From assembly GCF_017357525.1 (NCBI RefSeq), contig NZ_CP036172.1:2392561-2456560 (forward strand): 64,000 nt of DNA, in the 5' to 3' direction. Positions 3,080 through 57,758 of the stretch are shown one piece after another. Within the stretch, counting starts at the first letter, position 1. The number at the start of each line of letters is the position of its first letter. Made by a program: the position numbers and the translations under genes. A model generated the notes under the pieces. The model was not told where the DNA came from, did no database searches, and worked only from the letters and a program-made list of their open reading frames with translations. Source of the stretch: Methanofollis aquaemaris (GTDB taxonomy: Archaea; Halobacteriota; Methanomicrobia; Methanomicrobiales; Methanofollaceae).

Positions 3080-3082
3080 GGT

Positions 3083-6093: not shown

Positions 6094-6134
6094 GCATGTC
6101 CCTACCCATGTCAGATAAGTACCCTTGTACCGAC

Positions 6135-6143
6135 TTTTTATAA
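6135..6143 (-). promoter_or_regulatory. TATA-like box for the gatC operon
   Basis: On the minus strand TTATAAAAA lies 42 nt before the gatC ATG. An archaeal transcript would begin about 25 nt downstream, leaving a short leader. The call rests on sequence and spacing only. Confidence 0.45.
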
Positions 6144-6873
6144 CCGTTATGATACGGCCAGCAGTCGGATTTATTTTTTGTACAGGGGAAAACAAATACG
6201 TTTCAGCCGATATTTCCCTTTTCCTCTGAAGGTTGAATCTCGCATGGTAATAAAAGTGCCCGATATGCGAAGGGCATTGACGGTGCTGCACGAACTGAAG
6301 AAACAGGTGGATTTGATGACTTTATGAGAATCTTTCAGACTGATCTCTCTGCAGTGGGCGGGTCGTCGCCAGGTTGCCCCCGCGCAAAAGAGGGGGCCTG
6401 TGAGATCGGCACCCGGCATCGTCGCTCCCGTTGTCATCATTGTGTTCTGTGGGAGGTCCGGGGATATCCCCGCGTGAGGGAACGAGCGACGGAGATCCTG
6501 ACGTGAAAATCTTGTGAAACAATAATTCAGTCAATTATTTCTCTCATGAGAGAAGAGTGGGGTGAGGTAGATGCCACACGCCGCCGCCCCGCTACATCTA
6601 TCGCAGCGGCCGAGATCGGTGCGCACCCGCGTGAAATCCCGGCAACGTCTCTTGCAGCAAACCCTTCCGTTTTGCAGTCGTTTGCGGCAGTTCGCGGGAG
6701 GCGACGTCACACAACGGGCGGCGCGGTGGAGGTTGATCCGATTTTTCTCTGCCAGACGTCGAGATCACCGGATCAGTTACAACATTTCGGGTTTCGCACA
6801 CACACCCACCCGCAGACCCATGAGTATCCGGGCTACCGGGTGGGTGTGGGTTTTGCCGTAATATAGTACTAAG

Positions 6874-6891
6874 AGAGAGACGCGTCTCTCT
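6874..6891. repeat. Perfect 18-bp palindrome flanked by AGTACT
   Basis: AGAGAGACGCGTCTCTCT is self-complementary over 18 bp, and AGTACT hexamers flank it at 6865-6870 and 6901-6906. It sits far from any gene start. It may be an operator, a cruciform or a relic of a mobile element; no function is assigned. Confidence 0.5.
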
Positions 6892-7184
6892 ATCTATACT
6901 AGTACTGTCAGTTTCAACGTCGTCCCTCGCCGTTTGATCCTCGCGGCAACCGCTGCAATCCTGTGGTAAACCTGCTGCAATGTTGCAAGAGTCGGCGGGG
7001 CCGGGACCGTCGTCCCGGTCCTGTCCCCCGGTGCGATAGATGGGGAAGGCCATCCCCATCGAAAAATGTGTCCTTGCCGTCTCGCGCCGGGGGGAGACTC
7101 CCGTACTCCCCACGTCGAGGATTGGCGGAGGACGGCAGACCCCTCTTCAGGTGCATCGATGGAGCCTTCCCGTCCTATCTTCTT

Positions 7185-7336
7185 CCCGGGGGTTCCGGGG
7201 GCAGCGCCCCCGGCACCGATGTTTTGGAAGGCATGATGATCAGGCGTGCCGCCCCAACCGCAGCATCTTCCCCGCCGTCTCGCACCGGGGGGAGACACCC
7301 CGGACCCCCGACGGATCGAAGATAGGGGGGGCGGCG
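7185..7336 (-). repeat. Dispersed repeat family F1, copy 1
   Basis: About 150 bp containing a GGGGGCAGCGCCCCC hairpin, the core GGCATGATGATCAGGCGTGC, and CCGTCTCGCACCGGGGGGAG. Read on the minus strand it aligns with 26230-26376 and 58905-58988. A more diverged relative lies directly before it at about 7010-7170. Confidence 0.7.
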
Positions 7337-7350
7337 ATTGCGTGAGGTGC

Positions 7351-7447
7351 CCATCGATTCTTCTGTCTTGAAAAGAAAGCGATCAAGCGGTGAGAAATTT
7401 TCATCCCGTATGCTTGAACCCGGGGTTCATGCCCGATTCTACAGAGC
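7351..7447 (-). repeat. Dispersed repeat family F3, copy 1
   Basis: On the minus strand this contains ATGAACCCCGGGTTCAAGCA followed by TACGGGATGAAAAT. It aligns with 26101-26156 and, over nearly 100 bp, with 62083-62181. It lies directly downstream of the asparagine-synthetase-like gene stop. Confidence 0.7.
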
Positions 7448-7463
7448 CGAAACTCCGTTCAAT

Positions 7464-8486
7464 TCAGCGTTCCTCTTCGCCCAGCATTTGCAGGTAGTCG
7501 GCAACACGGCGACAACCCTGGCGACGTGCGAGTTTCTGGATCGTCTTCCAGATCCCGCTGCCGTACTGCATCGCTTTCTTCTCCGCCGCGGCGAATTCGA
7601 GAGGAATGTGCCGTTCCGCGACCGTTCTCAGGGGTCGTTTGCGCACGCCCCCCTCGATGAGGGAGGCCGCGGGGATGGCGCGGGCCGCCGCCGCCACGCG
7701 CAGGTCGAGGTACGGGGGCGAGAATGCAGTACCATAAGAGGAGGCCACCGCCCGGTCCCTGGCCACCTGGCGGGGAAGGTCGAGACGGTCGCGTTCGAGT
7801 TCTGCGGCGAGATCAGGGCTTTTGAGGTACCGTGCATACCCGCCGAAGAGTTCGTCGGCGCCCTGGCCGGTGAGCATCCAGGGGTAGCCGCGGTCCCGCG
7901 CCCACCTTGCGACGAAGATCTCGGTCGCGGCGATGGAGGCGTCGACGGGGTTTGGGGTGCCGAGGAGAGCGACGGCCTCGCGGAGCGCTTCTTCGACCTC
8001 GGGCACGGTGACGGTCACGGCGTCGCACTCGATCCCGCAGGCCGCGGCGAGGGCGAGGGCCAGGCGGCGGTCGTGGGAGTCTTCGAGCCCGACGACGACG
8101 GCCGGCCTTTGCGCAAGGGCGGCGACGAGTGCGGAGTCCACCCCACCGGAGAGGGCGACGGCGGTGTCGTCGGTCGCCCTGAGTTCGACGGCGGTGAGGA
8201 TTGCGGCCTCCAGGTCGCCTGCCGGGTGGGCCGGGTCGACTTCGCCGACGACCTCGCCATAGCGGGTGAGCGTGCCGGCCGGCGAGGGGCCGTCCCTGAT
8301 CCCGAAGCGGTCCCGCGCCGTCCACTCGCCGTACCTCAGGAAAAACTCCCCGCCAAAGAGGGTGGGGGCGAGAGGGTCGGCGCCGAAGGCCGCCTGCACC
8401 TCCTCTTTAGAGAGGCGGCGGCCGTCCATCTCCACCCATCCGTCGAGGTAAAATTCGACCCTGCCGTCCGCTCCTGTGCTGCTCAT
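7464..8486 (-). CDS. Asparagine-synthetase-like PP-loop protein
   Basis: 340 residues from MSSTGADGRVEFYLDGWVEM. The PP-loop ATP-pyrophosphatase motif AVALSGGVDSALVAAL sits near residue 105, followed by the Asn-synthase C-domain motif LTGQGADELFGGYARY and later KKAMQYGSG. These bind ATP and activate a carboxylate by adenylation. The N-terminal part is short and lacks the Met-Cys glutaminase nucleophile of true AsnB, so the protein should not use glutamine by itself. It may be an archaeal ammonia-dependent or other-substrate member of the family. The start at 8486 was chosen over an upstream extension because the extra residues are low-complexity and resemble nothing in the family. Repeat F3 lies directly after the stop. 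Confidence 0.8.
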   Translation of the reverse strand: MSSTGADGRVEFYLDGWVEMDGRRLSKEEVQAAFGADPLAPTLFGGEFFLRYGEWTARDRFGIRDGPSPAGTLTRYGEVVGEVDPAHPAGDLEAAILTAVELRATDDTAVALSGGVDSALVAALAQRPAVVVGLEDSHDRRLALALAAACGIECDAVTVTVPEVEEALREAVALLGTPNPVDASIAATEIFVARWARDRGYPWMLTGQGADELFGGYARYLKSPDLAAELERDRLDLPRQVARDRAVASSYGTAFSPPYLDLRVAAAARAIPAASLIEGGVRKRPLRTVAERHIPLEFAAAEKKAMQYGSGIWKTIQKLARRQGCRRVADYLQMLGEEER

Positions 8487-8670
8487 TGTGGGTAGGTTTG
8501 GTGCCGACCGATATGATACTCCCGCATGGGGAACGCGAGTGGAAGTGGGGTATAAGTCGGACACACATCCGGATCCGCCGGCGGGAACGCCTGTGAGATC
8601 CTCGGACGAGTCTTTGAATCCCAATTTATCTATTGGAATCTATATGCTGTGGCCAAATCTGTTCGGAGTT

Positions 8671-8690
8671 TTATTAATCCACATTTTTGA
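8671..8690 (+). promoter_or_regulatory. Upstream element shared by the two surface-protein genes (copy 1)
   Basis: A 20-nt sequence, TTATTAATCCACATTTTTGA, that matches 15420-15439 at 19 of 20 positions. It lies about 88 nt before the proposed start at 8778, in an A+T-rich tract. It may be a promoter or a regulator site. Confidence 0.45.
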
Positions 8691-8777
8691 ATGCTGAATA
8701 AATCGACAATAGCATATATGATATCTTGATTATATCTACTCGATAACCTTTCCTACAGTTTTCAGGAGGGAAACGAC

Positions 8778-11700
8778 ACGAAAAACCGACAATTATTCAG
8801 ACAATTCTCAGAAAGCATAAATCGTACCACACTCGTCCATTTCCTGGGCATACTCCTGCTCGCCCTCGCGCTCGCCTCCCCGCCGGCGGCGGCGGTCGAG
8901 TGGACGGTCGGGAGCGAGGGCTGCAACTTCACCACCATCGGCACGGCGCTCTCGAACACCTCAGTGACGGCCGGCGACGTCATCCTCATACGCCCCGGTA
9001 CCTATGACGAGAGCGTGACGGTGAACAAACGCCTCACCCTCAAGGGCGAGGCGGGCGCGACGGTGAACGGCGGGATCACGATCATCGCCGACGGTGCAAC
9101 AATCGAGGGCCTCGCCGTGAACGGGGCTGCGGGTTCCAGGACCATCGATGTCAACTGGGTCGCCGACGCCGTGGTGCGGGGGTGCACGGTCTCCGGCAGC
9201 AGGACCGGGATCTATATCGAATCGGCGCCGAACTGCACCGTGGAGGGGTGCACACTGGACGACACTATTACATACATTGGCATCGACCTCTTCGGGTCAG
9301 GCCAGTGCCGGATCCTGGACAACCAGTTGAGCGGGAGCGGATCTATCGGGATCACACTCGTGGATTGCCCCGACTGCATCATCTCCGGGAACACCGTCCA
9401 GGACAGTGATTTTGCAGGCATTAAACTCCAGAGCGGGTGCCAGGGCTCTGTGATCGTCGCCAACACCCTCTCCAACACCCCCAGTGGTATCGAGGTCACG
9501 GGTTGCACCGGCCAGACCACCGTCCTGAGAGACAACACCATCGTAGGAGCCAGAGACGAGGGAGTCTTCCTGGTGGATACGGACTCTCTCATCGTCGAGA
9601 ATATCACGGTGAGGGGCGGGGGCTATGGGGTCCGCCTCTCCTCTGTCGATACTATCACGCTCGCCAACAGCACCATCACCGGAACTGGTACCGGACTTTA
9701 TGTCGAGAGTACCACAACAGACTCTCTCATCGCAAACAACCTCTTCAACAACACGGAAAACATCAAGGTCGAGGCCGAAATCACCATGACCGGCACCCGG
9801 TGGAACACGACGAAGACCGCCGGTGAAAACATCCGCGGCGGTTCTTTCCTCGGCGGCAACCTCTGGCTGACGCCTGAAGGCAAGGGATTCTCCCAGACCC
9901 GTGCCGACCTCGACCTCGACGGGATCTGCGACGAGGGGTATGCGATCACGGACACCGCTGGAGAAGTCGTCGGCACTGATTTCTTCCCACTCCAGAATGG
10001 CGGGCCGTCGGCGAACTTCACCGTCACTTCCCCGGTTTTCATGCCCGGCGTGCCGGTCTCCTTCAACGACACTTCCGTGGGCGACCCCACTTCGTGGTCG
10101 TGGACGTTCGGCGACGAGACGCTGACCGCCAGGAACGTCACCCGCACCTACGATACCGCGGGTACCTACCTGGCGAACCTCACCGTCTCCAACACCCTCG
10201 GCACGAACACCACGACCCGCACCTTCACCATCGAGCCCTTCAGCATCCAGGCGGCGGTCGACGCTGCCGCCCCTGGAGATATCGTCCTCGTCCCGGCCGG
10301 CACCTATGACGAGGACGTGACCGTGGACAAGAACATCACCCTCAGGGGGAGCGAGGGTGCTGTGGTGAACGGCAAAATCTCCCTCACGAATACCGCGACC
10401 GGTGCGACCGTCGAGCACCTCGCCGTGAATGGGGTCGCAGGTTTCTCGACCATCACGGTCAATGCCGACGATGCCGTCGTACGTGAATGCACTATCTCTG
10501 GGGGGCAAAAAGGGATAGATCTCTATTCTGCGGAGAACTGCACCGTGGAGGGGTGTAGCGTGGGTGGCGCCACCGACGGCATCTCTCTCTACTCCATGGG
10601 TCAGTCCAGGATCCTGGACAACCAGGTGACCGGGTGTGGATGTTTCGGGATTGTACTCATACGGGATTGCCCGGAGTGTATCATCTCAGGAAACTCTGTC
10701 CAGAATTGTAATAGTTCAGGCATTCAACTCCAGTCCGGGTGCCAGGGTTCTGTGGTTGAGTCCAACACCTGTTCTCACAATAACAATGGTATCACGGTCA
10801 CCGGGTGCGCCGGCACGACCACTGTCCTGAGAGACAACACCATCATTGAAGACCGAAACATTGCAGTCAACCTGCAGAGCGGAGACTCCGTCATCGTCGA
10901 GAATGTCACGGCGAAGGACGGGAACTACGGTGTCTCCCTCATCGATGTCGAGAATATCACCATCACCAACAGCGCCTTCACCGGGTTCACCAGATATGGG
11001 CTGTATGTCCCCATTGGCTCTTCCGCGCCGCACTCGCTCATCGCAAACAACCTCTTCAACAACAGCGAGAACTTCTATCTCTCGTCCAGCGCCGATCTCT
11101 CCACCATCCGCTGGAACACCACAAAGACCGAGGGCACAAACATCCGCGGCGGTTCTTTCCTCGGCGGCAACCTCTGGCTGACGCCTGCGGGCACCGGGTT
11201 CTCAGAGACCCATGCCGACTTCGACCTCGACGGGATCTGCGATGAAGGATATGCGATCACCGATGATAACGGGGACGTCGCCGGCACCGACTTCTTCCCG
11301 CTCCAGAACGGCGGGCCGTCGGCGAACTTCAGCGTCACGTCGTCGGGCATGATGGTCGGCATGCCGGTCTTCTTCAACGACACTTCTGTGGGCGCTCCCA
11401 CTTCGTGGTCATGGACGTTTGACGGGCAGACAGAGACCACCCAGAACGTCACCCGCACCTACGATGTCGTGGGCACCTACCAGGCGACCCTGACGGTGAA
11501 GAACGAGTTCGGGACGAACACCACGAGCCGCACGCTCGATGTCGTACCGTACACAATCCAGGGGGCGGTGAACGCCGCCTCCGAGGGCGACGTCGTCCTC
11601 GTCCCGTCCGGCACCTATGACGAGGACGTGACCGTGGACAAAACCCTCACCCTCATGGGGAGCGAGGGTGCGGTCCTCAACGGCAGCATCACGATCACCG

Positions 11701-43786: not shown

Positions 43787-43821
43787 CGGACAGATGAATC
43801 CCTATTCGGGACCATTTGCTC

Positions 43822-44853
43822 ATGAGAAAGTTGCTCAATACCTTATATGTGACCACTCCCGAATCCTATCTGATCAGAGATGGTGAAAATGTCATCGTTA
43901 AGGTCAATGGTGAAGAGAGGTTCCGCATTCCCATACACAATATCGAGGGGATCGTGTGCTTTGGATATATGGGTGCCAGTCCGCAGTTGATGCGGTTGTG
44001 TACCGACAATAATGTCGGCCTCTCTTTTTTGACACCGTCGGGAAAATTTCTGGCACGGGTGCATGGACGGGTGCGAGGAAATGTCCTCCTGCGACGGACA
44101 CAGTATCGTACGGCGGACAACCCTGAAACCTCACTGGATATTGCCCGGGGTTTTATCATCGGGAAGGTGGTGAACTGTCGAACGGTCCTCGGAAGGGGTA
44201 TTCGCGATCATGGGGAGGTCGTCAGGTGTGACCGGATCCGGTCGGCAGATGCCATGCTGATCGAGAACCTGCCGGGGATCGATGACTGCGCCAACGCAGA
44301 TTCTCTCCGGGGCATCGAGGGGAACTGTGCGAAGTTCTATTTCGATGTCTTCGATGAATTGATCCTCAAGCAGAAGGATGATTTTTTCTTATCTGAACGG
44401 AACCGGCGGCCTCCTCTCGACAACATGAATGCGTTGCTATCGTTTCTGTATACTTTGCTTGCCCATGACGTCGAGTCCGCGCTGGAGACGGTGGGCCTTG
44501 ATCCCTATGTCGGGTTCTTCCATACCGATCGGCCCGGGAGACCGAGTCTGGCACTGGATCTGATGGAAGAACTCCGTCCCTTTCTGGGGGATCGTCTGGC
44601 CCTGAACCTAGTGAATTTGAAGCAGGTGACCGGGAGTGATTTTCTCAAGAAGGAGAATGGTGCGGTGATCATGACGGAGAATGGAAGGAAAAAGGTTCTG
44701 GCAGCCTGGCAGAAGAGGAAAGTGGATCTTATCACTCATCCTTACCTGAACGAGAAGATACCGGTCGGCCTGGTCCCCTATGTGCAGGCGATGGTGCTTG
44801 CCCGTTTCTTGCGGGGAGATATCGACGGGTATCCACCTTTCTTCATGAATTGA
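43822..44853 (+). CDS. cas1: CRISPR-associated endonuclease Cas1 (type I-C)
   Basis: 343 residues, MRKLLNTLYVTTPESYLIRD..., the opening of I-C Cas1. The N-terminal beta domain runs to about residue 85; the helical metal-dependent domain follows. SLRGIEGNCAKFYF carries the catalytic glutamate, GFFHTDRPGRPSLALDLMEE the histidine and acidic ligand. With Cas2 it inserts new spacers next to the leader. ATG 43822 was chosen over an in-frame TTG 6 nt earlier. It is followed by cas2 after 10 nt and lies on the leader side of the array. In the usual I-C order it follows cas4, which here sits 13 kb away. Confidence 0.96.
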   Translation: MRKLLNTLYVTTPESYLIRDGENVIVKVNGEERFRIPIHNIEGIVCFGYMGASPQLMRLCTDNNVGLSFLTPSGKFLARVHGRVRGNVLLRRTQYRTADNPETSLDIARGFIIGKVVNCRTVLGRGIRDHGEVVRCDRIRSADAMLIENLPGIDDCANADSLRGIEGNCAKFYFDVFDELILKQKDDFFLSERNRRPPLDNMNALLSFLYTLLAHDVESALETVGLDPYVGFFHTDRPGRPSLALDLMEELRPFLGDRLALNLVNLKQVTGSDFLKKENGAVIMTENGRKKVLAAWQKRKVDLITHPYLNEKIPVGLVPYVQAMVLARFLRGDIDGYPPFFMN

Positions 44854-44863
44854 GGTGTTTTGC

Positions 44864-45154
44864 ATGATGGTATTGGTCACCTATGATGTGAGTACGGAAT
44901 CGAACGAGGGAAAGAAGAGACTGCGAAGGGTGGCAAAGGAGTGCGTTAACTATGGACAGAGGGTTCAGAATTCCGTGTTTGAGTGTCTTGTGGATCCCGC
45001 CCAGTTTGCACAACTGAAACACTCTTTGTGTGGGATCATCGACGAGGAGAAGGACAGTCTCAGGTTTTATTATCTGGGAAAGAACTGGAAACGTCGGGTT
45101 GAGCATTTCGGTGCAAAGGAGGGGTACGATCCGGAAGGGTTATTAATCACCTGA
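44864..45154 (+). CDS. cas2: CRISPR-associated protein Cas2
   Basis: 96 residues, MMVLVTYDVSTESNEGKKRL..., a ferredoxin-like fold with the conserved Asp in TYDVS and the C-terminal YYLGKNWKRRVEHFGAKEGY typical of I-C Cas2. It bridges two Cas1 dimers in the spacer-integration complex. GAGGTG at 44852 serves as ribosome site; ATG 44864 and 44867 are both possible. The array leader begins directly after its stop. Confidence 0.95.
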   Translation: MMVLVTYDVSTESNEGKKRLRRVAKECVNYGQRVQNSVFECLVDPAQFAQLKHSLCGIIDEEKDSLRFYYLGKNWKRRVEHFGAKEGYDPEGLLIT

Positions 45155-45451
45155 TCGCTGCGAACCGGGAGCGGCCACCGTTTTCCCGGGAACTTCGCAG
45201 GGAAAATTGAAATCTTCGATATAGTTTTTGTGGTGGTGAGGAGGTTGTGTCATTTCTGGGAGTTCTGTCCTCCCTGGGGGTGTGGCTCTGTGGTTCACCT
45301 GGGTCGATTTATATTTGATTTGTGGAATATCTTGATTGGGCGCTTTTTGTGACGAAAACAATATTGCTCGTCGGGTTAACAAAATGGTGTTTAACTGGAT
45401 CTTTGTCTTATCTTTTGAGAAATGATGAGGGAAGGATCCGGGTAATCTGCA
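45155..45451 (+). promoter_or_regulatory. CRISPR leader
   Basis: 297 bp between the cas2 stop and the first repeat, with no gene. It is A+T-rich compared with its surroundings (for example TTTATATTTGATTTGTGGAA near 45308). It has the expected place and composition of the leader that carries the pre-crRNA promoter and the integration signals. Polarity is supported by intact repeats on this side and decayed repeats at the far end. Confidence 0.75.
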
Positions 45452-48400
45452 GTCACACCCTTCACGGGTGTGTGGATTGAAATTGTTTCATCCTCTCGGC
45501 GTCTGCCTTTGCGATCGTCACACCCTTCACGGGTGTGTGGATTGAAATTGATCTGTCTACAGCAGATTGAAATCGATCTGCGACGTCACACCCTTCACGG
45601 GTGTGTGGATTGAAATAATGGGGTGACTGGTGTTATTACAACCTTCGAGTCACACCCTTCACGGGTGTGTGGATTGAAATCGATTGCTCCGGGCACGTTG
45701 CTCACATTTAATCGTCACACCCTTCACGGGTGTGTGGATTGAAATAAGGTCGTCCCGGCCGACCTGTCCAGGCGAAGTGTCACACCCTTCACGGGTGTGT
45801 GGATTGAAATCTGAAGCCCCTGGAAGACGCTTATCACGGTGGTCACACCCTTCACGGGTGTGTGGATTGAAATAAAATCACCATCCAACCGCACACAAAT
45901 CGCCCCTAGTCACACCCTTCACGGGTGTGTGGATTGAAATTCCAGCCGCTTGTCAAAAATACGGGCTATTGCCAGTCACACCCTTCACGGGTGTGTGGAT
46001 TGAAATAGCCTGCCAAGTACTGTGGGTAAGAACATCCCAGTCACACCCTTCACGGGTGTGTGGATTGAAATTGAGTTCATCCTCACTGATGAGCCGCCGC
46101 TGGAGTCACACCCTTCACGGGTGTGTGGATTGAAATATAGAGCACGTCCCACAACTCAGGCAATGTTGTCACACCCTTCACGGGTGTGTGGATTGAAATC
46201 GACTGTTTACTGTACTACGAGCGGCGGATGTGCGTCACACCCTTCACGGGTGTGTGGATTGAAATACCTTTATCAAGGATATCGAGGTTGCCGGTCTCCG
46301 TCACACCCTTCACGGGTGTGTGGATTGAAATAATGCGGCGATCAAGCATCTCCTCGACGCCGCCGTCACACCCTTCACGGGTGTGTGGATTGAAATCTTT
46401 TCTCTGATCTCCAATCTCCCTCTCACTGAGTCACACCCTTCACGGGTGTGTGGATTGAAATCCTGGAAACTCGTCATGAAGGAGATGATTTGATGTCACA
46501 CCCTTCACGGGTGTGTGGATTGAAATTCGTGTCGTAGTGTTTAAACCATTTGAACATCCAGTCACACCCTTCACGGGTGTGTGGATTGAAATCGCTTAAG
46601 TGCGCGATTTGCCGGATGGCCTACGCCAGTCACACCCTTCACGGGTGTGTGGATTGAAATTGGAGATGGCTGGAACGGATGTTGATTGCGGTCTGTCACA
46701 CCCTTCACGGGTGTGTGGATTGAAATCGCTCAACAACTGCGAAGAATCCATGACTACTACCGTCACACCCTTCACGGGTGTGTGGATTGAAATCGGCAAT
46801 ACTTAGGGAGGTTTGGATACGACACAGAGTCACACCCTTCACGGGTGTGTGGATTGAAATCAGACCTTCAGGTTTATCAGTGGATGTTCAAATGTCACAC
46901 CCTTCACGGGTGTGTGGATTGAAATCGGTGGGTGTATTCTGATACCGACAGCGTTGCAGTCACACCCTTCACGGGTGTGTGGATTGAAATAAACGGTTAA
47001 TGCCGGCTGCGAGCAGGTGCTCCTGTCACACCCTTCACGGGTGTGTGGATTGAAATTAAAATATGTTGACACTACCCCAAAGTAAGCAAACTGTCACACC
47101 CTTCACGGGTGTGTGGATTGAAATGCTACCAAAGGCGCTTTTTACGACGACGACACCGTGTCACACCCTTCACGGGTGTGTGGATTGAAATGAGATGAAT
47201 GCTAAGGCGCTTGTAGGTACCGGGTGGTCACACCCTTCACGGGTGTGTGGATTGAAATTCTCGTTTAACAGAGGCTCAAGATAGGTGGGAGCCGTCGTCA
47301 CACCCTTCACGGGTGTGTGGATTGAAATCTCCGGGCCGGCTCGACGGTGGCGAACGCGACCGATGTCACACCCTTCACGGGTGTGTGGATTGAAATTGAA
47401 CATGAACCCGATAGACAATCGGGAGAACTTGCCGTCACACCCTTCACGGGTGTGTGGATTGAAATTCAACATCAAGAAAATAAATCCACAAACAATGCGT
47501 CACACCCTTCACGGGTGTGTGGATTGAAATGCCCACCGGTGATCGTCCCCCCTCTCGCGCATCGTCACACCCTTCACGGGTGTGTGGATTGAAATCCACA
47601 GGTCTGGGCCGCTTTGGCACCTAAACAGGGTCACACCCTTCACGGGTGTGTGGATTGAAATCGTATTGGGGATTTGTGCAGTCGTGGAAGCGCCGTCACA
47701 CCCTTCACGGGTGTGTGGATTGAAATCCGAGAGCACGAGCCGGAATAACGTATGTGTCGACGTCACACCCTTCACGGGTGTGTGGATTGAAATTCCGTCG
47801 CGGGCAAACGACTCGGCACAAAAGACGTCACACCCTTCACGGGTGTGTGGATTGAAATAACGTCGAATGAGTGAAGATCAAGAGGTATACCGAGTCACAC
47901 CCTTCACGGGTGTGTGGATTGAAATCAGATGCCGGTAAGCACCCGTGTTTGTCCACATGTCACACCCTTCACGGGTGTGTGGATTGAAATTTCACAACTA
48001 CGGGACTGTCCCCTGCAGAATTTGGTCACACCCTTCACGGGTGTGTGGATTGAAATTTTGGCGCCTTTATCGGGCTAAGCGGGCTGAAAGAGGTCACACC
48101 CTTCACGGGTGTGTGGATTGAAATTAAACACCTATCCGATAAATCAGAAGATATCAAACAGTCACACCCTTCACGGGTGTGTGGATTGAAATCACACTGC
48201 CGGCGTAGGTCGGTATCCCGCTTCCCGCGTCACACCCTTCACGGGTGTGTGGATTGAAATCCCCGCTCTCGATTTAGGGACGGTCAGGAGCGTTGTCACA
48301 CCCTTCACGGGTGTGTGGATTGAAATTCTTTGCTCCGCTCCCGGCCGGTTTTGCCTTCTGTCACACCCTTCACGGGTGTGTGGATTGAAATAGCCCGGCG

Positions 48401-51318
48401 AGCGACAACCGCACGCCACAGAAACCGTCACACCCTTCACGGGTGTGTGGATTGAAATGCTGAGGGGGGGCTGCGCCCCCCCCGCCGCCCCGTCGTCACA
48501 CCCTTCACGGGTGTGTGGATTGAAATCCTGTTCGCTCCATGCCCAAAATGATATATTAACGTCACACCCTTCACGGGTGTGTGGATTGAAATCTTTGACT
48601 CCCGGTGAAGGGCTGAGGTCTCTGGTGTCACACCCTTCACGGGTGTGTGGATTGAAATCTTCACGGGCGCACGCAGAGGGTGCCCTGGAAACTCGTCACA
48701 CCCTTCACGGGTGTGTGGATTGAAATCCGTTGTTTTACCTCAATCAGGGTAAGGAGCGGCAAGGTCACACCCTTCACGGGTGTGTGGATTGAAATTGAGG
48801 GCGGCGGATTGGGCTCCTGGGTGGATAGAGTCACACCCTTCACGGGTGTGTGGATTGAAATGCCACCAAAGGCCCTTTTTACGACGACGACACCGGTCAC
48901 ACCCTTCACGGGTGTGTGGATTGAAATAGAGGAAACGGCTGAACGTATCGCTGAGGCTTCGAAGTCACACCCTTCACGGGTGTGTGGATTGAAATTTTCG
49001 TTTAACAGAGGCTCAAGATAGGTGGGAGCCGTCACACCCTTCACGGGTGTGTGGATTGAAATCCGCCTCAGGTGGAGTTTTTCTCTATCACGGCGGACGT
49101 CACACCCTTCACGGGTGTGTGGATTGAAATCCGATAGCGCCGGGAACATTGCTCACATTTAACGTCACACCCTTCACGGGTGTGTGGATTGAAATTGCGC
49201 AGAGATGGACGACTACGACTCTGATGAGCGTCACACCCTTCACGGGTGTGTGGATTGAAATACCAGGGAAGCGGGCGTGTTGACTCTGGACCACTGTCAC
49301 ACCCTTCACGGGTGTGTGGATTGAAATTCCAATCGCTCCTGGCACGTTGCTCACATTCAACGTCACACCCTTCACGGGTGTGTGGATTGAAATTCTACTA
49401 TCCTAAGTGGAGACCACCCCACACAATGTCACACCCTTCACGGGTGTGTGGATTGAAATTCTACTATCCTAAGTGGAGACCACCCCACACAATCGTCACA
49501 CCCTTCACGGGTGTGTGGATTGAAATCTGAAGATATCGTGGGATTTGCCGAGAAAGCGGGGTCACACCCTTCACGGGTGTGTGGATTGAAATCGTGAGCT
49601 GCTCGATGATCCTTGTAACCGTCTCCGTCACACCCTTCACGGGTGTGTGGATTGAAATTTCAGATGCGGCCGGGAATGACTTGGTGTAAATGTCACACCC
49701 TTCACGGGTGTGTGGATTGAAATTACCCTCCTGACGTCCTGAGGGCAAACGCTGCCGTCACACCCTTCACGGGTGTGTGGATTGAAATTCCGAATAAAGG
49801 CTCGAATGCCACCGGAAAAACAGTCACACCCTTCACGGGTGTGTGGATTGAAATACCACCAGCACCACCAGCCAGATCCCCAGGTGGACGTCACACCCTT
49901 CACGGGTGTGTGGATTGAAATTGGAGAGAGGTGGATGGTCTGCCAGTAGGAGGTACGTCACACCCTTCACGGGTGTGTGGATTGAAATTGAGACTCCAGG
50001 ACGTCGAAACCCTCCGGGATCGTCACACCCTTCACGGGTGTGTGGATTGAAATCAGACCGGCGCCCTCACGGAGGAATCGGCGTCGGTGTCACACCCTTC
50101 ACGGGTGTGTGGATTGAAATTCTCCCCGCCTCCCCTTTGTGGCCCTGCTGATCGTCGTCACACCCTTCACGGGTGTGTGGATTGAAATCTACTTGGATTC
50201 AGGAGTGTGAATTCTCGTTCTCCAGTCACACCCTTCACGGGTGTGTGGATTGAAATCTCGATGGATCGGGCAAAGGGGAAGAGACCCGTGTCACACCCTT
50301 CACGGGTGTGTGGATTGAAATTTCCAGGCAATCATTGACCGGCTCGCGTCTGACGTCACACCCTTCACGGGTGTGTGGATTGAAATCCCTGCACCGGAGA
50401 AGACGCCGATCTGATCGCCGTCACACCCTTCACGGGTGTGTGGATTGAAATAGGCAGTTCGTGGATCGACGGCGACGCGTATACGGTCACACCCTTCACG
50501 GGTGTGTGGATTGAAATACAAACAGCGCAAGCCGCTTGGTATCGGCGCCCGTCGTCACACCCTTCACGGGTGTGTGGATTGAAATTTAACTTGGACCGTT
50601 ACGGGGACATCAGGATTGTTGTCACACCCTTCACGGGTGTGTGGATTGAAATGTCAGACTGATCACCTGCCGGTTGCGTGGGTGATGGTCACACCCTTCA
50701 CGGGTGTGTGGATTGAAATTCTTGGAGCCATCCAGTAGGGCCAGTCATATATGTCACACCCTTCACGGGTGTGTGGATTGAAATATCGATGCACACCGAG
50801 AACCGCGCCCCGGTCTTGGTCACACCCTTCACGGGTGTGTGGATTGAAATAGGAAATGGGGGATTACGACAAGACGCCCCTTGACAGTCACACCCTTCAC
50901 GGGTGTGTGGATTGAAATTCTCTCAAGGCTGCACGGGCCGCATCCGCAACGGGGGGTCACACCCTTCACGGGTGTGTGGATTGAAATTCGCTGGAGGTCA
51001 ACCCGACCATCTCAGATGATGTGTCACACCCTTCACGGGTGTGTGGGTTGAAATAGCCACAACAAGAGTAGGGTGCCGCCCAGGATCAGGTCACACCCTT
51101 TCACAGGTGCGTGTATTGAATCCCCCACAGGCAATTCAGGTATGGAGTCCATGGTCGCCCCCTTGAAGAGTGCGTGGATTGAAATGTTGTGCTTGTAATA
51201 CACTAAAACTGAAACGAATGTCATACTCTTCATGGGTATGTGGATTGAAATATTGTTGATTACATGAATAACCTTCAAACCAAACGGTCGTACTCTTTAT
51301 AGGTGCGTGGATTGGAAT
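45452..51318 (+). CRISPR. Type I-C CRISPR array, 89 repeats and 88 spacers
   Basis: The repeat is 32 nt, begins GTCACACCCTTCACGGGTGT and ends GTGGATTGAAAT, with a 7-bp stem CACACCC/GGGTGTG. The ATTGAAAT end would give the crRNA 5' tag made by Cas5. By hand count 84 repeats appear identical, the 85th (51023) has one change, and four decayed repeats follow at 51090, 51154, 51220 and 51287. Spacers are 31-38 nt, mostly 33-36. Several spacers are variants of each other: spacers 4/56/59, 26/52, 28/54, and 60/61 nearly identical. Transcription should run on the plus strand from the leader. A hairpin terminator follows the last repeat. Confidence 0.98.
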
Positions 51319-51350
51319 CTCCCCCGCATTGGCCGGGGAGGCGCTTTTTT
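51319..51350 (+). terminator. Terminator directly after the CRISPR array
   Basis: CTCCCC...GGGGAG hairpin (arms 51319-51324 and 51335-51340) followed by TTTTTT at 51345-51350. It begins at the last base pair of the final decayed repeat and would keep the pre-crRNA from running into cas3. Confidence 0.65.
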
Positions 51351-51395
51351 CCGGGTCTCTGACTTGAACATATGCTTATCCACTCCGCATTTGAG

Positions 51396-51402
51396 ATATA
51401 AT
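51396..51402 (+). promoter_or_regulatory. TATA-like box for the cas3 operon
   Basis: ATATAAT lies about 40 nt before the cas3 ATG in an A+T-rich stretch between the array terminator and the gene. It suggests that the effector genes have their own promoter. Confidence 0.4.
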
Positions 51403-51440
51403 GAATAATATTATCGTGTAGTATATTCGAAGTAATATCA

Positions 51441-53636
51441 ATGCCTCGTATGGCGTATTATGCTCACACGACAAATAATCCGGATAAATCCGACTGGCAA
51501 CCCCTCAGAGACCATCTGATACACGTTGCAGACCTCGCATCGACCTTCGCAGAGGACTTCAGTGCCGGCGAGTTTGCGTATGCCGGCGGTCTGCTGCACG
51601 ACCTCGGAAAATATTCTCCAGAATTTCAGAGACGCTTGGAAGGCACCCCCATCGGCGTCGACCATTCCACCGCCGGTGCACGGGAGGCACGGTCCCGCTA
51701 CCATCCGGCCCACAGTCGGATCCTGGAATATATCATCACCGGTCATCACGGAGGGCTTCTCAATTATGGGAACAGCGAGAGCGGACTCGAAGAGCGCCTT
51801 TTGAAATCATATCTGCCGGACTACTCGGCCTACCGCGATGAAGTTTCAGTCCCTGACCTGAATGGGGCTCGCGTCGCCGCGCAACCCCTTCAGAACACCA
51901 TCGGGTTCACGTTCTCGTTCTACACTCGCATGCTCTACTCGTGCCTGGTCGATGCAGACTCTCTGGATACCGAAGCATTCACCAGCCCTGAAAAGTCCGG
52001 TCTCAGAGGCCGGTACGATCCGTTCGAACTCCTCTCCAAAAAATTCGAGGACCACATGAACACCGTGCAGGCACGTGCCGAGGAGAGCGCGATCAACCGG
52101 TATCGACGGTCGATCCTGGAGCAATGCAGAAAAAAAGCGACCTTCCCACCTGGGATGTTTACCCTGACCGTCCCCACCGGGGGAGGGAAGACCCTCTCGT
52201 CCATGGCATTTGCCCTGGACCACCTGAAACAGAACGACCTGAAAAGGATCTTCTACGTCATCCCCTATACCAGCATCATCGAGCAGAACGCCAGGGTTTT
52301 CAGGAATATCTTCGGTGGTCAAAACGTGCTGGAACATCACAGCAACTTTGACCCGGCGAAGGTCCTGCCTGAAGAGGACGCTTCGACAGAGGAGACACTC
52401 AGACTCTCATCCGAGAACTGGGACATGCCCATCGTCGTCACCACCAACGTCCAGTTCTTCGAGTCGCTCTTCTCCAGCAAACGGTCCAGGTGCAGAAAAC
52501 TGCACAACCTGGCAAAGAGCGTGATCATCCTTGACGAGGCCCAGATGCTCCCGACCGAGTATCTGAGACCCTGCCTCGCGGCACTCTCCGAACTTGTCGG
52601 GAACTATGGTTCGACGGTCGTCATCTGCACGGCAACGCAGCCGAAACTCGGCGAACTGCTGGACGAACGACTCAACCCGGTTGAGATCACCGATTCGCCG
52701 GAAGAACTCTACGAGGCCTTCAGGCGCGTGCAGGTGCGCAACCTCGGTGACCTGGACGACGTCGCCCTCTCCGACCGATTGAGGGCGCACCGGCAGGTGC
52801 TCTGCATCGTCAACACCCGGAACCACGCGAAGAAACTCTACGACGCCCTCAAGGATTCGGGGGCATGCTATCATCTCAGCGCCAGGATGTGCCCGGCGCA
52901 CCGGAGTGCGGTTCTGGATGAGATCAAAAAGCAGTTGAAAGCAGGTGTCGAGTGCCGCGTCATCTCGACCCAGCTCATCGAGGCCGGGGTGGACATCGAC
53001 TTTCCGGTGGTGTATCGGGCAATGAGCGGCGTCGATTCCATCGCTCAGGCGTCGGGCCGTTGCAACCGCGAGGGAAATCTGGAGTTCGGGGAGGTCTATC
53101 TCTTCAGGTCCACCGAACCCCACGGCCGGGCGACCAGCTGGCAACGACGGGTCGCCGAGATCGGTGAGATGACCCTCGAAACTACCGATGATCCCCTCTC
53201 TCTCCCGGCGGTGGCGGATTACTTCCGGAAACTCTACTTCTATGAAGGGGACGACGGGCTTGACAGGAAGAAGATCCTCTTGTCCCTTGAGGATGAGGGA
53301 AATCTTAGATTTCCGTTTGAGGACGTCGACGCGGCGTTCAGGATCATCGAGGCAGGAACCAAAGAGGTCATCGTCCCCTATGACAAAAATGCCGAATCGG
53401 TCATACAGGAACTCAAGGGTACCTCCTGTCCATGGAAAGTCGCACGAAAACTCCAGCCCTATACGGTCAGCGTCTATGCCCAGGAGTTTAGAGCACTGGA
53501 AGAAGCGGGTGCCCTGGAGTCTATTGGCGGCCAGTATTATGTACTGAAAGATAAAGAGCGTTATTCTGAGAAAACAGGGCTTGAAAACTCATATCAGAAA
53601 ATATATACGTATGACGGTTCATTGTCGATTACATGA
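51441..53636 (+). CDS. cas3: CRISPR-associated helicase-nuclease Cas3 (type I-C)
   Basis: 731 residues. The N-terminal HD nuclease shows LIHVADLAST, GGLLHDLGKYSPEFQ and ITGHHGG (residues about 28-105). The SF2 helicase follows: Walker A LTVPTGGGKTLSS near residue 242, the Walker B box as ILDEAQMLP, and motif VI IAQASGRCNREG. Cas3 is recruited by Cascade and degrades the target DNA. Length and order are normal for I-C. It is the first gene of the cas3-cas5-cas8c-cas7-cas4 operon, with cas5 a few nt downstream. All key residues are intact. Confidence 0.96.
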   Translation: MPRMAYYAHTTNNPDKSDWQPLRDHLIHVADLASTFAEDFSAGEFAYAGGLLHDLGKYSPEFQRRLEGTPIGVDHSTAGAREARSRYHPAHSRILEYIITGHHGGLLNYGNSESGLEERLLKSYLPDYSAYRDEVSVPDLNGARVAAQPLQNTIGFTFSFYTRMLYSCLVDADSLDTEAFTSPEKSGLRGRYDPFELLSKKFEDHMNTVQARAEESAINRYRRSILEQCRKKATFPPGMFTLTVPTGGGKTLSSMAFALDHLKQNDLKRIFYVIPYTSIIEQNARVFRNIFGGQNVLEHHSNFDPAKVLPEEDASTEETLRLSSENWDMPIVVTTNVQFFESLFSSKRSRCRKLHNLAKSVIILDEAQMLPTEYLRPCLAALSELVGNYGSTVVICTATQPKLGELLDERLNPVEITDSPEELYEAFRRVQVRNLGDLDDVALSDRLRAHRQVLCIVNTRNHAKKLYDALKDSGACYHLSARMCPAHRSAVLDEIKKQLKAGVECRVISTQLIEAGVDIDFPVVYRAMSGVDSIAQASGRCNREGNLEFGEVYLFRSTEPHGRATSWQRRVAEIGEMTLETTDDPLSLPAVADYFRKLYFYEGDDGLDRKKILLSLEDEGNLRFPFEDVDAAFRIIEAGTKEVIVPYDKNAESVIQELKGTSCPWKVARKLQPYTVSVYAQEFRALEEAGALESIGGQYYVLKDKERYSEKTGLENSYQKIYTYDGSLSIT

Positions 53637-53651
53637 AAGGAGGTGATTGCT

Positions 53652-54311
53652 ATAGGTTTTGGAATTTGTTTAAAAGTCTGGGGAGACTACGCCTGCTTCA
53701 CGCGTCCTGAAATGAAGGTCGAACGGGTGAGTTATGACGTAATGACTCCCTCGGCGGCACGGGGCATTCTCGAAGCGATCTACTGGAAGCCCGCGATCTG
53801 CTGGAAGATCGACAGGATCCATGTCATGAACCGGATCGCGTACGACAATATCCGCAGGAATGAAGTTCTCGGAAAAATTCCTGCAGCAAAAGTGAAGTCC
53901 GCCCTCAAGGGCAAGGACGTCCAGCTCTATCAGGACTCGAATGAAGCCCGCGTCCAGCGTGCCTCTCTTCTGCTCCGTGATGTCTGTTACTGCATCGAGG
54001 CGCACTTCGAACTGACCGAGAAGGCGGGACCGGACGACACGCCTGAGAAGCACTACAATATTGCGCTCCGGAGGATGAGACGAGGACAGTGTTTCCATCA
54101 TCCCTATCTCGGGTGTCGCGAGTTTCCCGCTCGGTTCGAACTCATCGAAGGGACGGTCCCGCCCTCATGCCACACCGGGGAGAGGGATCTCGGGTTTATG
54201 CTCTATGACATCGATTTTGCCGACGATATGAGACCTGTCTTCTTCAGGGCCAGGATGGTCGACGGCGTCATCGATGTTAGAGAGTGTCTGGGCGCCGGAG
54301 GTGTCTCGTGA
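53652..54311 (+). CDS. cas5: CRISPR-associated protein Cas5 (I-C, crRNA-processing)
   Basis: About 219 residues, xGFGICLKVWGDYACFTRPE MKVERVSYDVMTPSAARG... (Cas5d/I-C signature). In I-C it cuts the repeat RNA and caps the 5' handle. Start: a perfect GGAGG at 53639-53643 is followed after 8 nt by ATA at 53652, exactly where ATG is expected. The only standard start nearby, GTG 53643, overlaps the ribosome site and so should not be served by it. Either ATA is used, or an ATG was changed. YYLxxxxFD-type C-terminal strands (FMLYDIDFADDMRPVFFRAR) are present. The stop overlaps the cas8c GTG. Confidence 0.9.
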   Translation: MGFGICLKVWGDYACFTRPEMKVERVSYDVMTPSAARGILEAIYWKPAICWKIDRIHVMNRIAYDNIRRNEVLGKIPAAKVKSALKGKDVQLYQDSNEARVQRASLLLRDVCYCIEAHFELTEKAGPDDTPEKHYNIALRRMRRGQCFHHPYLGCREFPARFELIEGTVPPSCHTGERDLGFMLYDIDFADDMRPVFFRARMVDGVIDVRECLGAGGVS

Positions 54312-56227
54312 TCATTCAGGCTCTCTGCCGGTATTACGATATTTTAGAGCGCGACGAGAGCGTGAAGATTGCCAGGCCTGGGTACAGCCGGGCACCGGTC
54401 TCGTTCGCCCTTGTCCTCTCCGATGACGGCGAGATGACGCACATCGTCGACCTCAGGAGTGATGATAAGAAGCCGAGGCCGCAGGAGATGGATGTGCCCC
54501 TCCAGCCTTCTCGCGCCAACAGTATTGCCCCGTATTTCGCGTGTGACAATGCGAAGTACGTCTTCGGCGTTGAAAAACTGAAGATCAAAGAGTTTGAGAA
54601 GAAGTTTGCGAAAAATGCTGCCAATGGGGATTCGCAGGACGCTCTGGTCCTGGAGAAGGATGACAAAGAAGTTGTCCTGATCTCTCAGCGTTCCAGAGAT
54701 TGCTTTGAGGCCTTCAAGGCCCTCCACCATGAGGTGCTCGACGGTCTGGACGACGCCGGTGTCAGAAGTTTTCTGAAGTTCCTGGATGGGTGGGACCCTG
54801 CATCGTTCCTCGGCCATCCGAAGGTTCTCCGGTACAAGGACGAGATCCTCAATGGCGGGAGCTTCGTCTTCGAGTGCGGAGGGGGCTACCTGCACAGGAA
54901 CGGTGCAATCCGACGTGCCTGGGAGGGGCACTTCTCCAATGAAAACGACGGTGACGGTTCTGCTGCTCAGTGCCTGGTAAGCGGGGATGTGGAGCCGATC
55001 GCCAGGTTGCATCAGAAGATTAAGGGGGTGGTCGGCGCTCAGACTGCAGGGGCGTCGCTGGTCAGTTTCAATGACAGAGCCTTCGAGTCATATGGGAAAG
55101 ACCAGAGTTACAATGCGCCGGTCGGCGAGACCTCGATGTTCAAGTACACGACGGCGCTGAACCATCTTCTTGCGCATCAGGAGAACCGGATGGGTATCGC
55201 CGATACGACGACGGTCTTCTGGGCTGAGACACAGGACCGGACCTGTGAAGACCTGGCACGTTTCCTGATGAACCCTCGTGAGGAGGAGGCCGTCCCCGAA
55301 AACGATGAACCCGCCGACGGTGCGAGGGTCAGGGATAAAAAAACACGCAAACTGGTCGGAGACATTCTCAAGAAAGTGAGGTCTGGCCAGAAGATCAATC
55401 AGGCAGATATCCACACCGACCCGGAGACAAACTTCTACATCCTTGGTCTCTCTCCCAACAATGCGAGACTTGCGGTGCGGTTCTGGTATATGGACAGTTT
55501 TGGAAATTTTGTTGACCGGGTCGGCCGTCACCACCTGGATATGGAGATCATCAAAGGTGATTTCAGCCCGAAATATGTCTCGATATCCCGATTGTTGAAA
55601 GCGACCCTGCCGAAGGGGTCGAAGGACCAGAAATCCCAGCCAAAGACTGTTCAAAAAGTGTCGCCGCTTCTTGGCGGCCTGGTTATGAATGCGATCCTGA
55701 AAAACCAGCCCTATCCGGTCCAGATGTACGGTGCGGTCCTGAACCGCGTGAAGGTGGGGCGGTCGATCGATGCCGTGCAGGCCGGGTTTATCAAAGCATA
55801 TCTGCTGAGAATGTGCCGGGCCGGTGGAACGAAATTACAGGAGGATTTGATTACTGTGAGTCTGAATGAAGAGAGTCCAGATGTGCCGTACCGTCTTGGA
55901 AGGCTGTTTGCCGTCCTTGAAAAGGCACAGAACGACACGAACGGAGAGATGAAGAGCACCATCAACAGCAAGTATTTCAGCAGTGCGTCGTCGACGCCGG
56001 CCGTGGTATTCCCGGTTCTGCTCAAACTTGCCCAGCACCACATCGCCAAGTCCGAGTGGGGGTTCAAGTCGAACAAGTCCATCGAAGAGATCCTGTCGGG
56101 AGTTGACGGGTTCCCTGCATATCTGAACCTTGAAGAGCAGGGCATGTTCATGCTGGGTTATTATCATCAGCGCAAGGCATTTTTCCAGAAGAAAGAGGAG
56201 ACTCCGGTTGAGGAGGCTAAATCATGA
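54308..56227 (+). CDS. cas8c: CRISPR-associated protein Cas8c (Csd1)
   Basis: 639 residues from GTG 54308 (MIIQALCRYYDILERDESVK...), the typical opening of Csd1. Later signatures are YNAPVGETSMFKYTTALNHL, VFWAETQD, LSPNNARLAVRFWYMDSFGN and PYRLGRLFAVLEKAQNDTNG. It is the large subunit of I-C Cascade and recognises the PAM; its C-terminal part may double as the small subunit (Cas11c) from an internal start. The start overlaps the cas5 stop, and the stop overlaps the cas7 start (ATGA). Confidence 0.95.
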   Translation: MIIQALCRYYDILERDESVKIARPGYSRAPVSFALVLSDDGEMTHIVDLRSDDKKPRPQEMDVPLQPSRANSIAPYFACDNAKYVFGVEKLKIKEFEKKFAKNAANGDSQDALVLEKDDKEVVLISQRSRDCFEAFKALHHEVLDGLDDAGVRSFLKFLDGWDPASFLGHPKVLRYKDEILNGGSFVFECGGGYLHRNGAIRRAWEGHFSNENDGDGSAAQCLVSGDVEPIARLHQKIKGVVGAQTAGASLVSFNDRAFESYGKDQSYNAPVGETSMFKYTTALNHLLAHQENRMGIADTTTVFWAETQDRTCEDLARFLMNPREEEAVPENDEPADGARVRDKKTRKLVGDILKKVRSGQKINQADIHTDPETNFYILGLSPNNARLAVRFWYMDSFGNFVDRVGRHHLDMEIIKGDFSPKYVSISRLLKATLPKGSKDQKSQPKTVQKVSPLLGGLVMNAILKNQPYPVQMYGAVLNRVKVGRSIDAVQAGFIKAYLLRMCRAGGTKLQEDLITVSLNEESPDVPYRLGRLFAVLEKAQNDTNGEMKSTINSKYFSSASSTPAVVFPVLLKLAQHHIAKSEWGFKSNKSIEEILSGVDGFPAYLNLEEQGMFMLGYYHQRKAFFQKKEETPVEEAKS

Positions 56228-57075
56228 GTGAGATTATCAAAAATCGGTATGAGTTTGTATTGCTGTTCGATGTCGAGAACGGGAACCCGAACGGCGATCC
56301 CGACATGGGCAATATGCCCCGGATCGACCCGCAGACTGGCAACGGCATCGTGACCGACGTATGTCTCAAGAGGAAGATCAGAGACTACGTGGACCTTGTC
56401 AGGGACGGAGTTCCGGGGTATGATATCTATGTCAAGACGGGCGCCGTCCTCAATGATCAGCACAGGAAGGCCTATGACTATCTCGGGATCGAGCCCTCCA
56501 AGAATAAACCGGGTGATTCCAGACTGACTGAGTTCATGTGTGAGAATTTCTTTGACATCCGCACGTTCGGTGCCGTGATGACGACGGAAGTGAACTGCGG
56601 GCAGGTCAGGGGGCCGGTGCAGATCAACTTTGCCCGGAGCATGGACCCGGTCTTCCAGCAGGAGGTCACCGTCACCCGGTGTGCGGTCACCAATGAGAAA
56701 GACGCTGAAAAGGGTCAGACAATGGGCAAAAAGCAGATGGTGCCCTATGCCCTGTACCGTGCAGAAGGATACATCTCCGCTCACCTGGCCCAGAAGACGA
56801 CCGGATTCAATGAGGACGACCTGGAACTGCTCTGGGACAGTCTGGTCAATATGTTCGAGCACGACCACTCGGCGGCGCGGGGGAAGATGTCTGCACGCAA
56901 ACTGATCGTCTTCAAGCACAGGAACGAACTCGGGTGCTGTCAGTCCCACGTCCTCTTTGACGGAGTGAAGGTGGAGCGTCTCTCCGGTGATCTCCCGCCG
57001 CGTTCGTTCGGCGATTACCGTGTCACCGTCTCCGACGACGTCCCTGACGGCGTTGAGTTGATCGAAAAATTATGA
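56224..57075 (+). CDS. cas7: CRISPR-associated protein Cas7 (I-C, Csd2)
   Basis: 283 residues, MSEIIKNRYEFVLLFDVENG NPNGDPD..., the Cas7/Csd2 signature. ITVTRCAVTNEKDAEK-like EVTVTRCAVTNEKDAEKGQT and MGKKQMVPYALYRAEGYISA are also typical. Several copies form the backbone of Cascade along the crRNA spacer. Its start overlaps the cas8c stop and its stop overlaps the cas4 start, so dosage probably depends on local translation strength. Length is normal. Confidence 0.96.
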   Translation: MSEIIKNRYEFVLLFDVENGNPNGDPDMGNMPRIDPQTGNGIVTDVCLKRKIRDYVDLVRDGVPGYDIYVKTGAVLNDQHRKAYDYLGIEPSKNKPGDSRLTEFMCENFFDIRTFGAVMTTEVNCGQVRGPVQINFARSMDPVFQQEVTVTRCAVTNEKDAEKGQTMGKKQMVPYALYRAEGYISAHLAQKTTGFNEDDLELLWDSLVNMFEHDHSAARGKMSARKLIVFKHRNELGCCQSHVLFDGVKVERLSGDLPPRSFGDYRVTVSDDVPDGVELIEKL

Positions 57076-57758
57076 TCCGGAAAAGATATACCGACGACGA
57101 GTTGCTCTCGTTGTCAGGTATACAGCATTTCTCTTTTTGTAAGCGGCAATGGGCCTTGATCCATATCGAACGCCAGTGGGAAGATAATCTTCGGACGACA
57201 GAGGGTCACTTCTTGCATGAACGGGTGGACGACCCCTATTTTACGGAGAGTCGGGGAGATGTCGTGATCTCACGGGCATTCCCCCTGGTGTCGTATGCGC
57301 TCGGGTTCTATGGGGTGGCCGATGTGATCGAGTACACGCGGTCGAAGGAGGGGATCTCTCTGCCCGGCCACGAGGGCCTCTGGACGATGCGGCCGGTCGA
57401 ATACAAAAGAGGAAAGCCAAAGGTCGATGAACGCGATGAGGTCCAACTCTGTGCCCAGGCGATGTGCCTCGAAGAGATGTTCGGCGTCGAGATCGGGTCA
57501 ACTGATTTCTATTACCATGAAATTCGGAGAAGGGTGCATCTCGACCTCGCCGATGCGTTACGGGATCGTGTCTGCTCGCTCTCCGACGAGATGCACGACC
57601 TTTTCAGGAGAGGGAAAACCCCTGCCGCCGAAAAATCGAGGGCCTGTAGACTCTGTTCTCTTGTCGAGGTCTGTGTCCCGAAGTTGACGACGAAACGTCG
57701 CTCTGTCGGGAGATATGTCAGGAACCATGTGAGAGATGCGTGTGAGGGTGATTTCTGA
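57072..57758 (+). CDS. cas4: CRISPR-associated exonuclease Cas4
   Basis: 228 residues. The four iron-sulfur cysteines are visible: FSFCKRQWAL near the N-terminus and CRLCSLVEVC near residue 195. PD-(D/E)xK nuclease residues lie in GVADVIEY and RPVEYKRGKPK, with QLCAQAMCLEEMF as the RecB-like motif. Cas4 trims spacer precursors and selects the PAM together with Cas1-Cas2. Here it is the last gene of the effector operon and is separated from cas1-cas2 by the array, unlike the usual cas4-cas1-cas2 order. Confidence 0.95.
   Translation: MIRKRYTDDELLSLSGIQHFSFCKRQWALIHIERQWEDNLRTTEGHFLHERVDDPYFTESRGDVVISRAFPLVSYALGFYGVADVIEYTRSKEGISLPGHEGLWTMRPVEYKRGKPKVDERDEVQLCAQAMCLEEMFGVEIGSTDFYYHEIRRRVHLDLADALRDRVCSLSDEMHDLFRRGKTPAAEKSRACRLCSLVEVCVPKLTTKRRSVGRYVRNHVRDACEGDF

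What the first reader, a model, noticed from the sequence alone, without database searches (positions are those of the whole stretch)
45681..49361. Three CRISPR spacers encode the same peptide and differ only at third codon positions
Spacer 4 (45681-45713), spacer 56 (49131-49163) and spacer 59 (49328-49361) share the core GCTCACATT. On the minus strand all three read LNVSNVPGAI(G). Over ten aligned codons, 4 vs 56 differ at four sites, 4 vs 59 at four, and 56 vs 59 at seven, and every difference is at a third codon position and synonymous. This is what is expected if the cell repeatedly acquired the same protospacer from diverging relatives of one mobile element in which this peptide is under purifying selection. 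The spacers span much of the array, from near the leader to the far half, so the contact was recurrent. The peptide is a ready probe for the hunted element.
Basis: partly seen in the sequence, partly recalled or inferred. Interest (0 to 1): 0.75.

Follow-up and report, generated by a model that had tools for sequence, protein, structure and literature searches.

The report
CRISPR spacers repeatedly sampling one target
An archaeon's CRISPR memory holds three slightly different copies of the same coding stretch of some invader, which means it met diverged relatives of one still unknown virus or plasmid more than once; this is a clean example of a known behaviour rather than a new one.

Summary
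Spacers 4, 56 and 59 of an 84-spacer type I-C array are homologous. All 8 variable columns fall in one codon phase (P about 4e-5), all 22 other columns are identical, and shuffled spacers never give such pairs. Independent acquisition of one coding protospacer from diverged relatives of one mobile element is by far the best explanation.

First, the peptide is not settled. Third positions face third positions on the two strands, so the + strand reading (P)IAPGTLLTFN is synonymous throughout as well, just like LNVSNVPGAI(G) on the minus strand. A codon model favours the minus strand only 3-5 fold, and codon usage gives mixed answers. Second, the triple is not unique: 26/52, 28/54 and 60/61 also re-sample single sites. 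Random sampling of an element family of roughly 10-50 kb would explain this without any hotspot.

The hunted element was not found in phage, plasmid, viral-contig or genome collections with either reading. Look-alikes in apgM and trpF were tested and rejected. The same behaviour is published for Legionella type I-C. Ordinary but sound.

The parts
43816..44853 (+). cas1 (type I-C Cas1c)
   Evidence: TIGR03640 E 7.9e-147; PF01867
44867..45154 (+). cas2
   Evidence: TIGR01573 E 1.3e-20
45155..45451 (+). presumed leader, between cas2 and the first repeat
   Evidence: next to cas1-cas2; degenerate repeats lie at the other end of the array
45452..51318 (+). CRISPR array: 32-nt repeat GTCACACCCTTCACGGGTGTGTGGATTGAAAT, 84 regular spacers, degenerate repeats at the distal end (51023-51318)
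   Evidence: the only place in the genome that matched a repeat-bearing query
45681..45713 (+). spacer 4, member of the re-sampled triple (most recent)
49131..49163 (+). spacer 56, member of the triple
49328..49361 (+). spacer 59, member of the triple (oldest)
47125..47159 (+). spacer 26, same protospacer site as spacer 52 (2 differences, not both at third positions)
48862..48895 (+). spacer 52, same site as spacer 26
47259..47296 (+). spacer 28, same site as spacer 54 (1 difference; 38 vs 35 nt)
48996..49030 (+). spacer 54, same site as spacer 28
49394..49427 (+). spacer 60, identical to spacer 61 but 1 nt shorter
49460..49494 (+). spacer 61, neighbour of spacer 60; duplication or second acquisition
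51441..53636 (+). cas3
   Evidence: TIGR01587 and TIGR01596
53643..54311 (+). cas5c
   Evidence: TIGR01876 E 5.1e-55
54284..56227 (+). cas8c/csd1
   Evidence: TIGR01863 E 9.9e-133
56224..57075 (+). cas7/csd2
   Evidence: TIGR02589 E 7.7e-104
57072..57758 (+). cas4
   Evidence: TIGR00372 E 1e-29

Best explanation
[quoted passage not shown] Shown: homology, codon-phased synonymous differences, different spacer boundaries, complete I-C machinery. Inferred: that the donor is a mobile element. Also inferred: that older spacers failed against the newer relatives through PAM-proximal mismatches and a PAM shifted by one base, so that a re-infection or a primed response yielded a fresh spacer at the same site. 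The coding strand stays open, with the minus strand (LNVSNVPGAIG) mildly preferred over the plus strand (PIAPGTLLTFN).
For: Array and spacers; I-C genes. Similarity far above shuffles. Eight variable columns in one codon phase, P 3.6e-5, and 22 of 22 other columns identical. Start registers -1, 0 and +1 and different lengths argue against copying of one spacer. Three more same-site groups in the array. 84 random draws from about 600 sites would give four or more groups 81% of the time. Published I-C precedent: older mismatched and newer matching spacers on overlapping regions of Legionella LME-1, and two independent acquisitions of one protospacer in the laboratory (PMC5071653).
Against: No protospacer was found anywhere, so the mobile-element origin, the PAM and the gene are unproven. 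If all three donors carry a strict TTC PAM, a codon next to the shared block differs between donors in both readings, so conservation is limited to about 11 codons. 60/61 may be a plain duplication. 26/52 has at least one difference outside third positions in any frame.
Confidence: 0.87

Rival explanations
1. The donors are chromosomal genes of other archaea (for example a trpF-like or apgM-like gene), taken up by cell-cell DNA exchange, not a virus or plasmid.
For: In the minus reading, LNVSNVPGAI fits the TrpF motif GGLNxxNVxxAI (G111: GGLNMSNVPAAI), and the codon before L in spacer 4 is xGA, compatible with Gly. It also resembles apgM (LNVVNVPGATG in G236).
Against: Two unrelated housekeeping genes match equally well, which points to chance; control patterns gave as many hits. 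The trpF genes inspected in the order differ from the spacers at 12 or more of 30 bases, own trpF at 16-18. Own apgM encodes MEVVQVPGATG.
Confidence: 0.05
2. The three spacers descend from one acquisition by array duplication and later mutation inside the array.
For: Spacers 60 and 61 are adjacent and nearly identical, so duplication occurs or can be imitated.
Against: Array mutation would not respect codon phase (P 3.6e-5). The repeats around them are unmutated, the neighbouring spacers are unrelated, and the boundaries differ by one base each.
Confidence: 0.02
3. One acquisition hotspot (strong PAM or free DNA end) in the element, rather than random re-sampling, explains the triple.
For: A triple is only 6% likely with 1200 equal sites.
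Against: With about 600 or fewer sites a triple is 21% likely or more. No donor sequence is available to show a PAM cluster or end.
Confidence: 0.25
4. The conserved gene lies on the plus strand and encodes (P)IAPGTLLTFN, so the first reader's peptide is the antisense of the real one.
For: All differences are synonymous on the plus strand too. Codon usage of virus Blf4 and of the provirus prefers plus.
Against: Substitution pattern prefers minus 2.9-5.4 fold; host codon usage prefers minus. With a TTC PAM the minus reading gains one more synonymous Gly codon while plus breaks (inference).
Confidence: 0.38

Closest known systems
Legionella pneumophila type I-C spacers against LME-1 (PMC5071653)
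   Same: Same CRISPR subtype; pairs of spacers of different age hit overlapping regions of one element, the older carrying PAM or seed mismatches; independent acquisition of one protospacer was seen in the laboratory.
   Different: There the element is known. Here it is unknown, three rather than two acquisitions hit one site, and the differences are codon-phased and synonymous.
Methanoculleus bourgensis spacers against virus Blf4 (PMC8540584)
   Same: Methanogen arrays holding several imperfect spacers (0-5 mismatches) against one tailed virus lineage.
   Different: CRISPR type I-U, not I-C. No spacer of this array matches Blf4 or 31 related contigs above background.
Type I-C CRISPR-Cas
   Same: All seven cas genes and the typical repeat ending in ATTGAAAT.
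   Different: Gene order here is cas1-cas2-array-cas3-cas5-cas8c-cas7-cas4, with the array lying inside the locus.

Membership tests
Type I-C CRISPR-Cas | cas8c/csd1 signature gene | tested here: met
   TIGR01863, 443.7 bits over cut-off 218.65
Type I-C CRISPR-Cas | cas5c, cas7/csd2, cas3, cas4, I-C cas1, cas2 | tested here: met
   all above their NCBIfam cut-offs
Type I-C CRISPR-Cas | 5'-TTC PAM | not testable with these tools
   no intact protospacer found; the one partial match (spacer 78 in the own provirus) has GACC upstream
Independent re-acquisition of one protospacer from diverged donors | spacers homologous beyond chance | tested here: met
Independent re-acquisition of one protospacer from diverged donors | differences show coding constraint in the donor | tested here: met
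   8 of 8 variable columns in one phase, synonymous
Independent re-acquisition of one protospacer from diverged donors | spacer boundaries differ, so not copies of one another | tested here: met
   start registers -1, 0, +1; ends differ by one base
Independent re-acquisition of one protospacer from diverged donors | donor elements identified | tested here: inconclusive
   no donor in the collections searched, which are incomplete for viruses of this group

The most novel reading that the evidence does not exclude
The re-sampled sites belong to one compact, not yet sequenced virus or plasmid family of this methanogen, whose co-circulating lineages (about 20% apart at this site between spacers acquired close together, 56 and 59) are recorded in the array, so that a single genome gives both a size estimate and a divergence record of an unseen element.
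Probability: 0.3. Interest if true: 0.45.

Novelty: new member of a known kind. Interest (0 to 1): 0.3.

Why it matters
It shows that a single array can preserve homologous, codon-constrained fragments of an invader that is absent from the collections searched. Such groups give the conserved positions of an invader gene, a rough effective target size (about 580 sites, or 19 kb at one TTC per 32 bp; wide interval) and evidence that diverged lineages co-existed. It also warns that third-position matching on opposite strands can make the antisense peptide look equally conserved.

Tried and rejected
Back-translated patterns for both peptides in viral contigs and genome contigs: none. Plus pattern with 2 mismatches in 232 genomes of the order: only the array itself. 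Union of both readings in 394 genomes of the phylum: four outside hits, three of them in apgM, rejected; the fourth was not examined. Minus pattern with 3 mismatches: one outside hit, in trpF, rejected after comparing trpF genes of the order. Nearly all spacers by blastn against phages and a subset, including all re-sampled sites, against plasmids: none. Patterns for 26/52, 28/54 and 60/61 in viral contigs: none. 28/54 in the order with 3 mismatches: one weak hit, antisense to a kinase-like gene. Translated spacers against Blf4 and 31 related contigs: at the level of reversed controls; a hit to a capsid-like gene (L079) has 10 mismatches, as controls do. Spacer 81 against guaA-like host genes: 9 mismatches, chance. 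Overlaps 16/49 (11 nt) and 17/22 (13 nt): of a size also seen in shuffles, dropped.

Full report
WHAT IS THERE. The window holds a complete type I-C CRISPR-Cas locus on the + strand: cas1 43816-44853, cas2 44867-45154, the array 45452-51318, cas3 51441-53636, cas5c 53643-54311, cas8c 54284-56227, cas7 56224-57075, cas4 57072-57758. The array has a perfect 32-nt repeat and 84 regular spacers. The repeats decay at the 51 kb end, so the leader lies beside cas2 and low spacer numbers are the recent ones. It is the only place in the 2.75 Mb genome that matched a repeat-spacer-repeat query.

THE OBSERVATION. Spacers 4, 56 and 59 lie exactly where stated. Aligned on 33 columns they vary at columns 2, 5, 8, 11, 14, 17, 29 and 32, all in the same codon phase (P 3.6e-5), while all 22 non-wobble columns are identical. 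Their pairwise scores (19-23) lie beyond anything in 40 shuffled spacer sets (maximum 16). The counts of 4, 4 and 7 differences are correct.

THE STRAND IS NOT SETTLED. The variable positions are third positions on the minus strand, giving LNVSNVPGAI(G), but they are also third positions of a plus-strand frame, giving (P)IAPGTLLTFN, and every difference is synonymous there too. A likelihood comparison that lets wobble bases evolve only within their amino-acid class prefers minus by 2.9-5.4 fold (an earlier version, overstated this because it did not charge for split codon boxes). Codon usage disagrees among references: window genes prefer minus; Blf4 genes and the genome's own provirus prefer plus. 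If each donor carried TTC directly upstream (the I-C motif; reported as GAA downstream for Legionella), column -1 would be T, C and T, which adds a synonymous Gly codon on minus and breaks the plus reading. That is inference and weak. I put minus at about 0.6.

NOT ALONE. The same array re-samples other sites: 26/52, 28/54 and 60/61. A wobble-masked comparison of all pairs finds exactly these four groups well above shuffles, with 28/43 (13 against a shuffle maximum of 11) a marginal extra. If 84 spacers are drawn at random from about 600 sites, four or more groups are expected 81% of the time and a triple 21% of the time; with 1200 sites these fall to 31% and 6%. Six coincident pairs correspond to about 580 sites, or about 19 kb at one TTC per 32 bp, with a Poisson interval of 9-51 kb, wider if only four groups are counted. 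This assumes that all spacers sample one element family evenly, which is certainly a simplification. A hotspot is therefore possible but not needed. The pairs 26/52 and 28/54 recur in the same order with the same offset of 26 positions (chance about 0.016); I cannot explain this.

ORDER AND DIVERGENCE. The two older spacers, 56 and 59, lie three places apart but are the most different (7 of 10 wobble sites), and the recent spacer 4 is closer to each of them. So the donors were probably co-existing lineages rather than one lineage drifting with time (inference). A newer donor would carry mismatches in the PAM-proximal part against an older spacer, and its PAM would be shifted by one base. Escape followed by naive or primed re-acquisition is the natural mechanism (inference).

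THE TARGET. It was not found. Patterns for both readings gave nothing in viral and genome contigs, nor did blastn against phages and plasmids. Patterns with 2-3 mismatches in the order returned only the array and one trpF gene; the phylum search returned mainly apgM genes. Both are host enzymes with short look-alike motifs. Own apgM reads MEVVQVPGATG, own trpF differs at 16-18 of 30 bases, and the trpF genes inspected in the order differ at 12 or more. Blf4, the one Methanoculleus virus examined, and 31 contigs with a related terminase show nothing above reversed controls.

COMPARISON. Legionella type I-C arrays show the same behaviour against the element LME-1: pairs of spacers on overlapping regions with the older one mismatched in PAM or seed, read by the authors as escape followed by primed acquisition; in the laboratory two independent spacers hit one protospacer (PMC5071653). 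The present case works like that and belongs to the same kind, with a neat codon-phase signature but without a known donor.

VERDICT. A real and well-read observation with an ordinary explanation. The peptide should be offered only as one of two candidates.

Noticed in passing
window 47125-47296 and 48862-49030: Spacers 26 and 28 re-sample the sites of 52 and 54 in the same order with the same offset of 26 positions and one unrelated spacer between them (chance about 0.016). Unexplained.
   Followed up: partly
window 43816-57758: Gene order is cas1-cas2-array-cas3-cas5-cas8c-cas7-cas4: the array sits inside the locus, between the adaptation genes and the effector genes.
   Followed up: no
L044 (own genome 505000-521000), about 2869-11446: A likely integrated element with a rolling-circle-type Rep (PF23343), a large probable surface protein and membrane proteins. 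Spacer 78 matches it with 4 mismatches in 35 and no TTC upstream, so a relative of the resident element was probably the donor.
   Followed up: partly
L045 8050-8720 (genome G006, same genus): A different CRISPR array (I-E-like repeat, 61-nt period) holds a spacer sharing 28 of 28 bases with spacer 81 of this array: two species with different CRISPR types seem to remember the same target.
   Followed up: partly
window 45549-45584: Spacer 2 contains GATTGAAAT, the 3' end of the repeat, inside the spacer.
   Followed up: no
window 45339-45360: The leader region carries GGCGCTTTTTGTGACGAAAACA, 82% like part of spacer 26; probably chance.
   Followed up: no
window 48459-48494: Spacer 46 is an almost pure G/C hairpin (GGGGGGGCTGCGCCCCCCC), an odd target for a spacer.
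   Followed up: no
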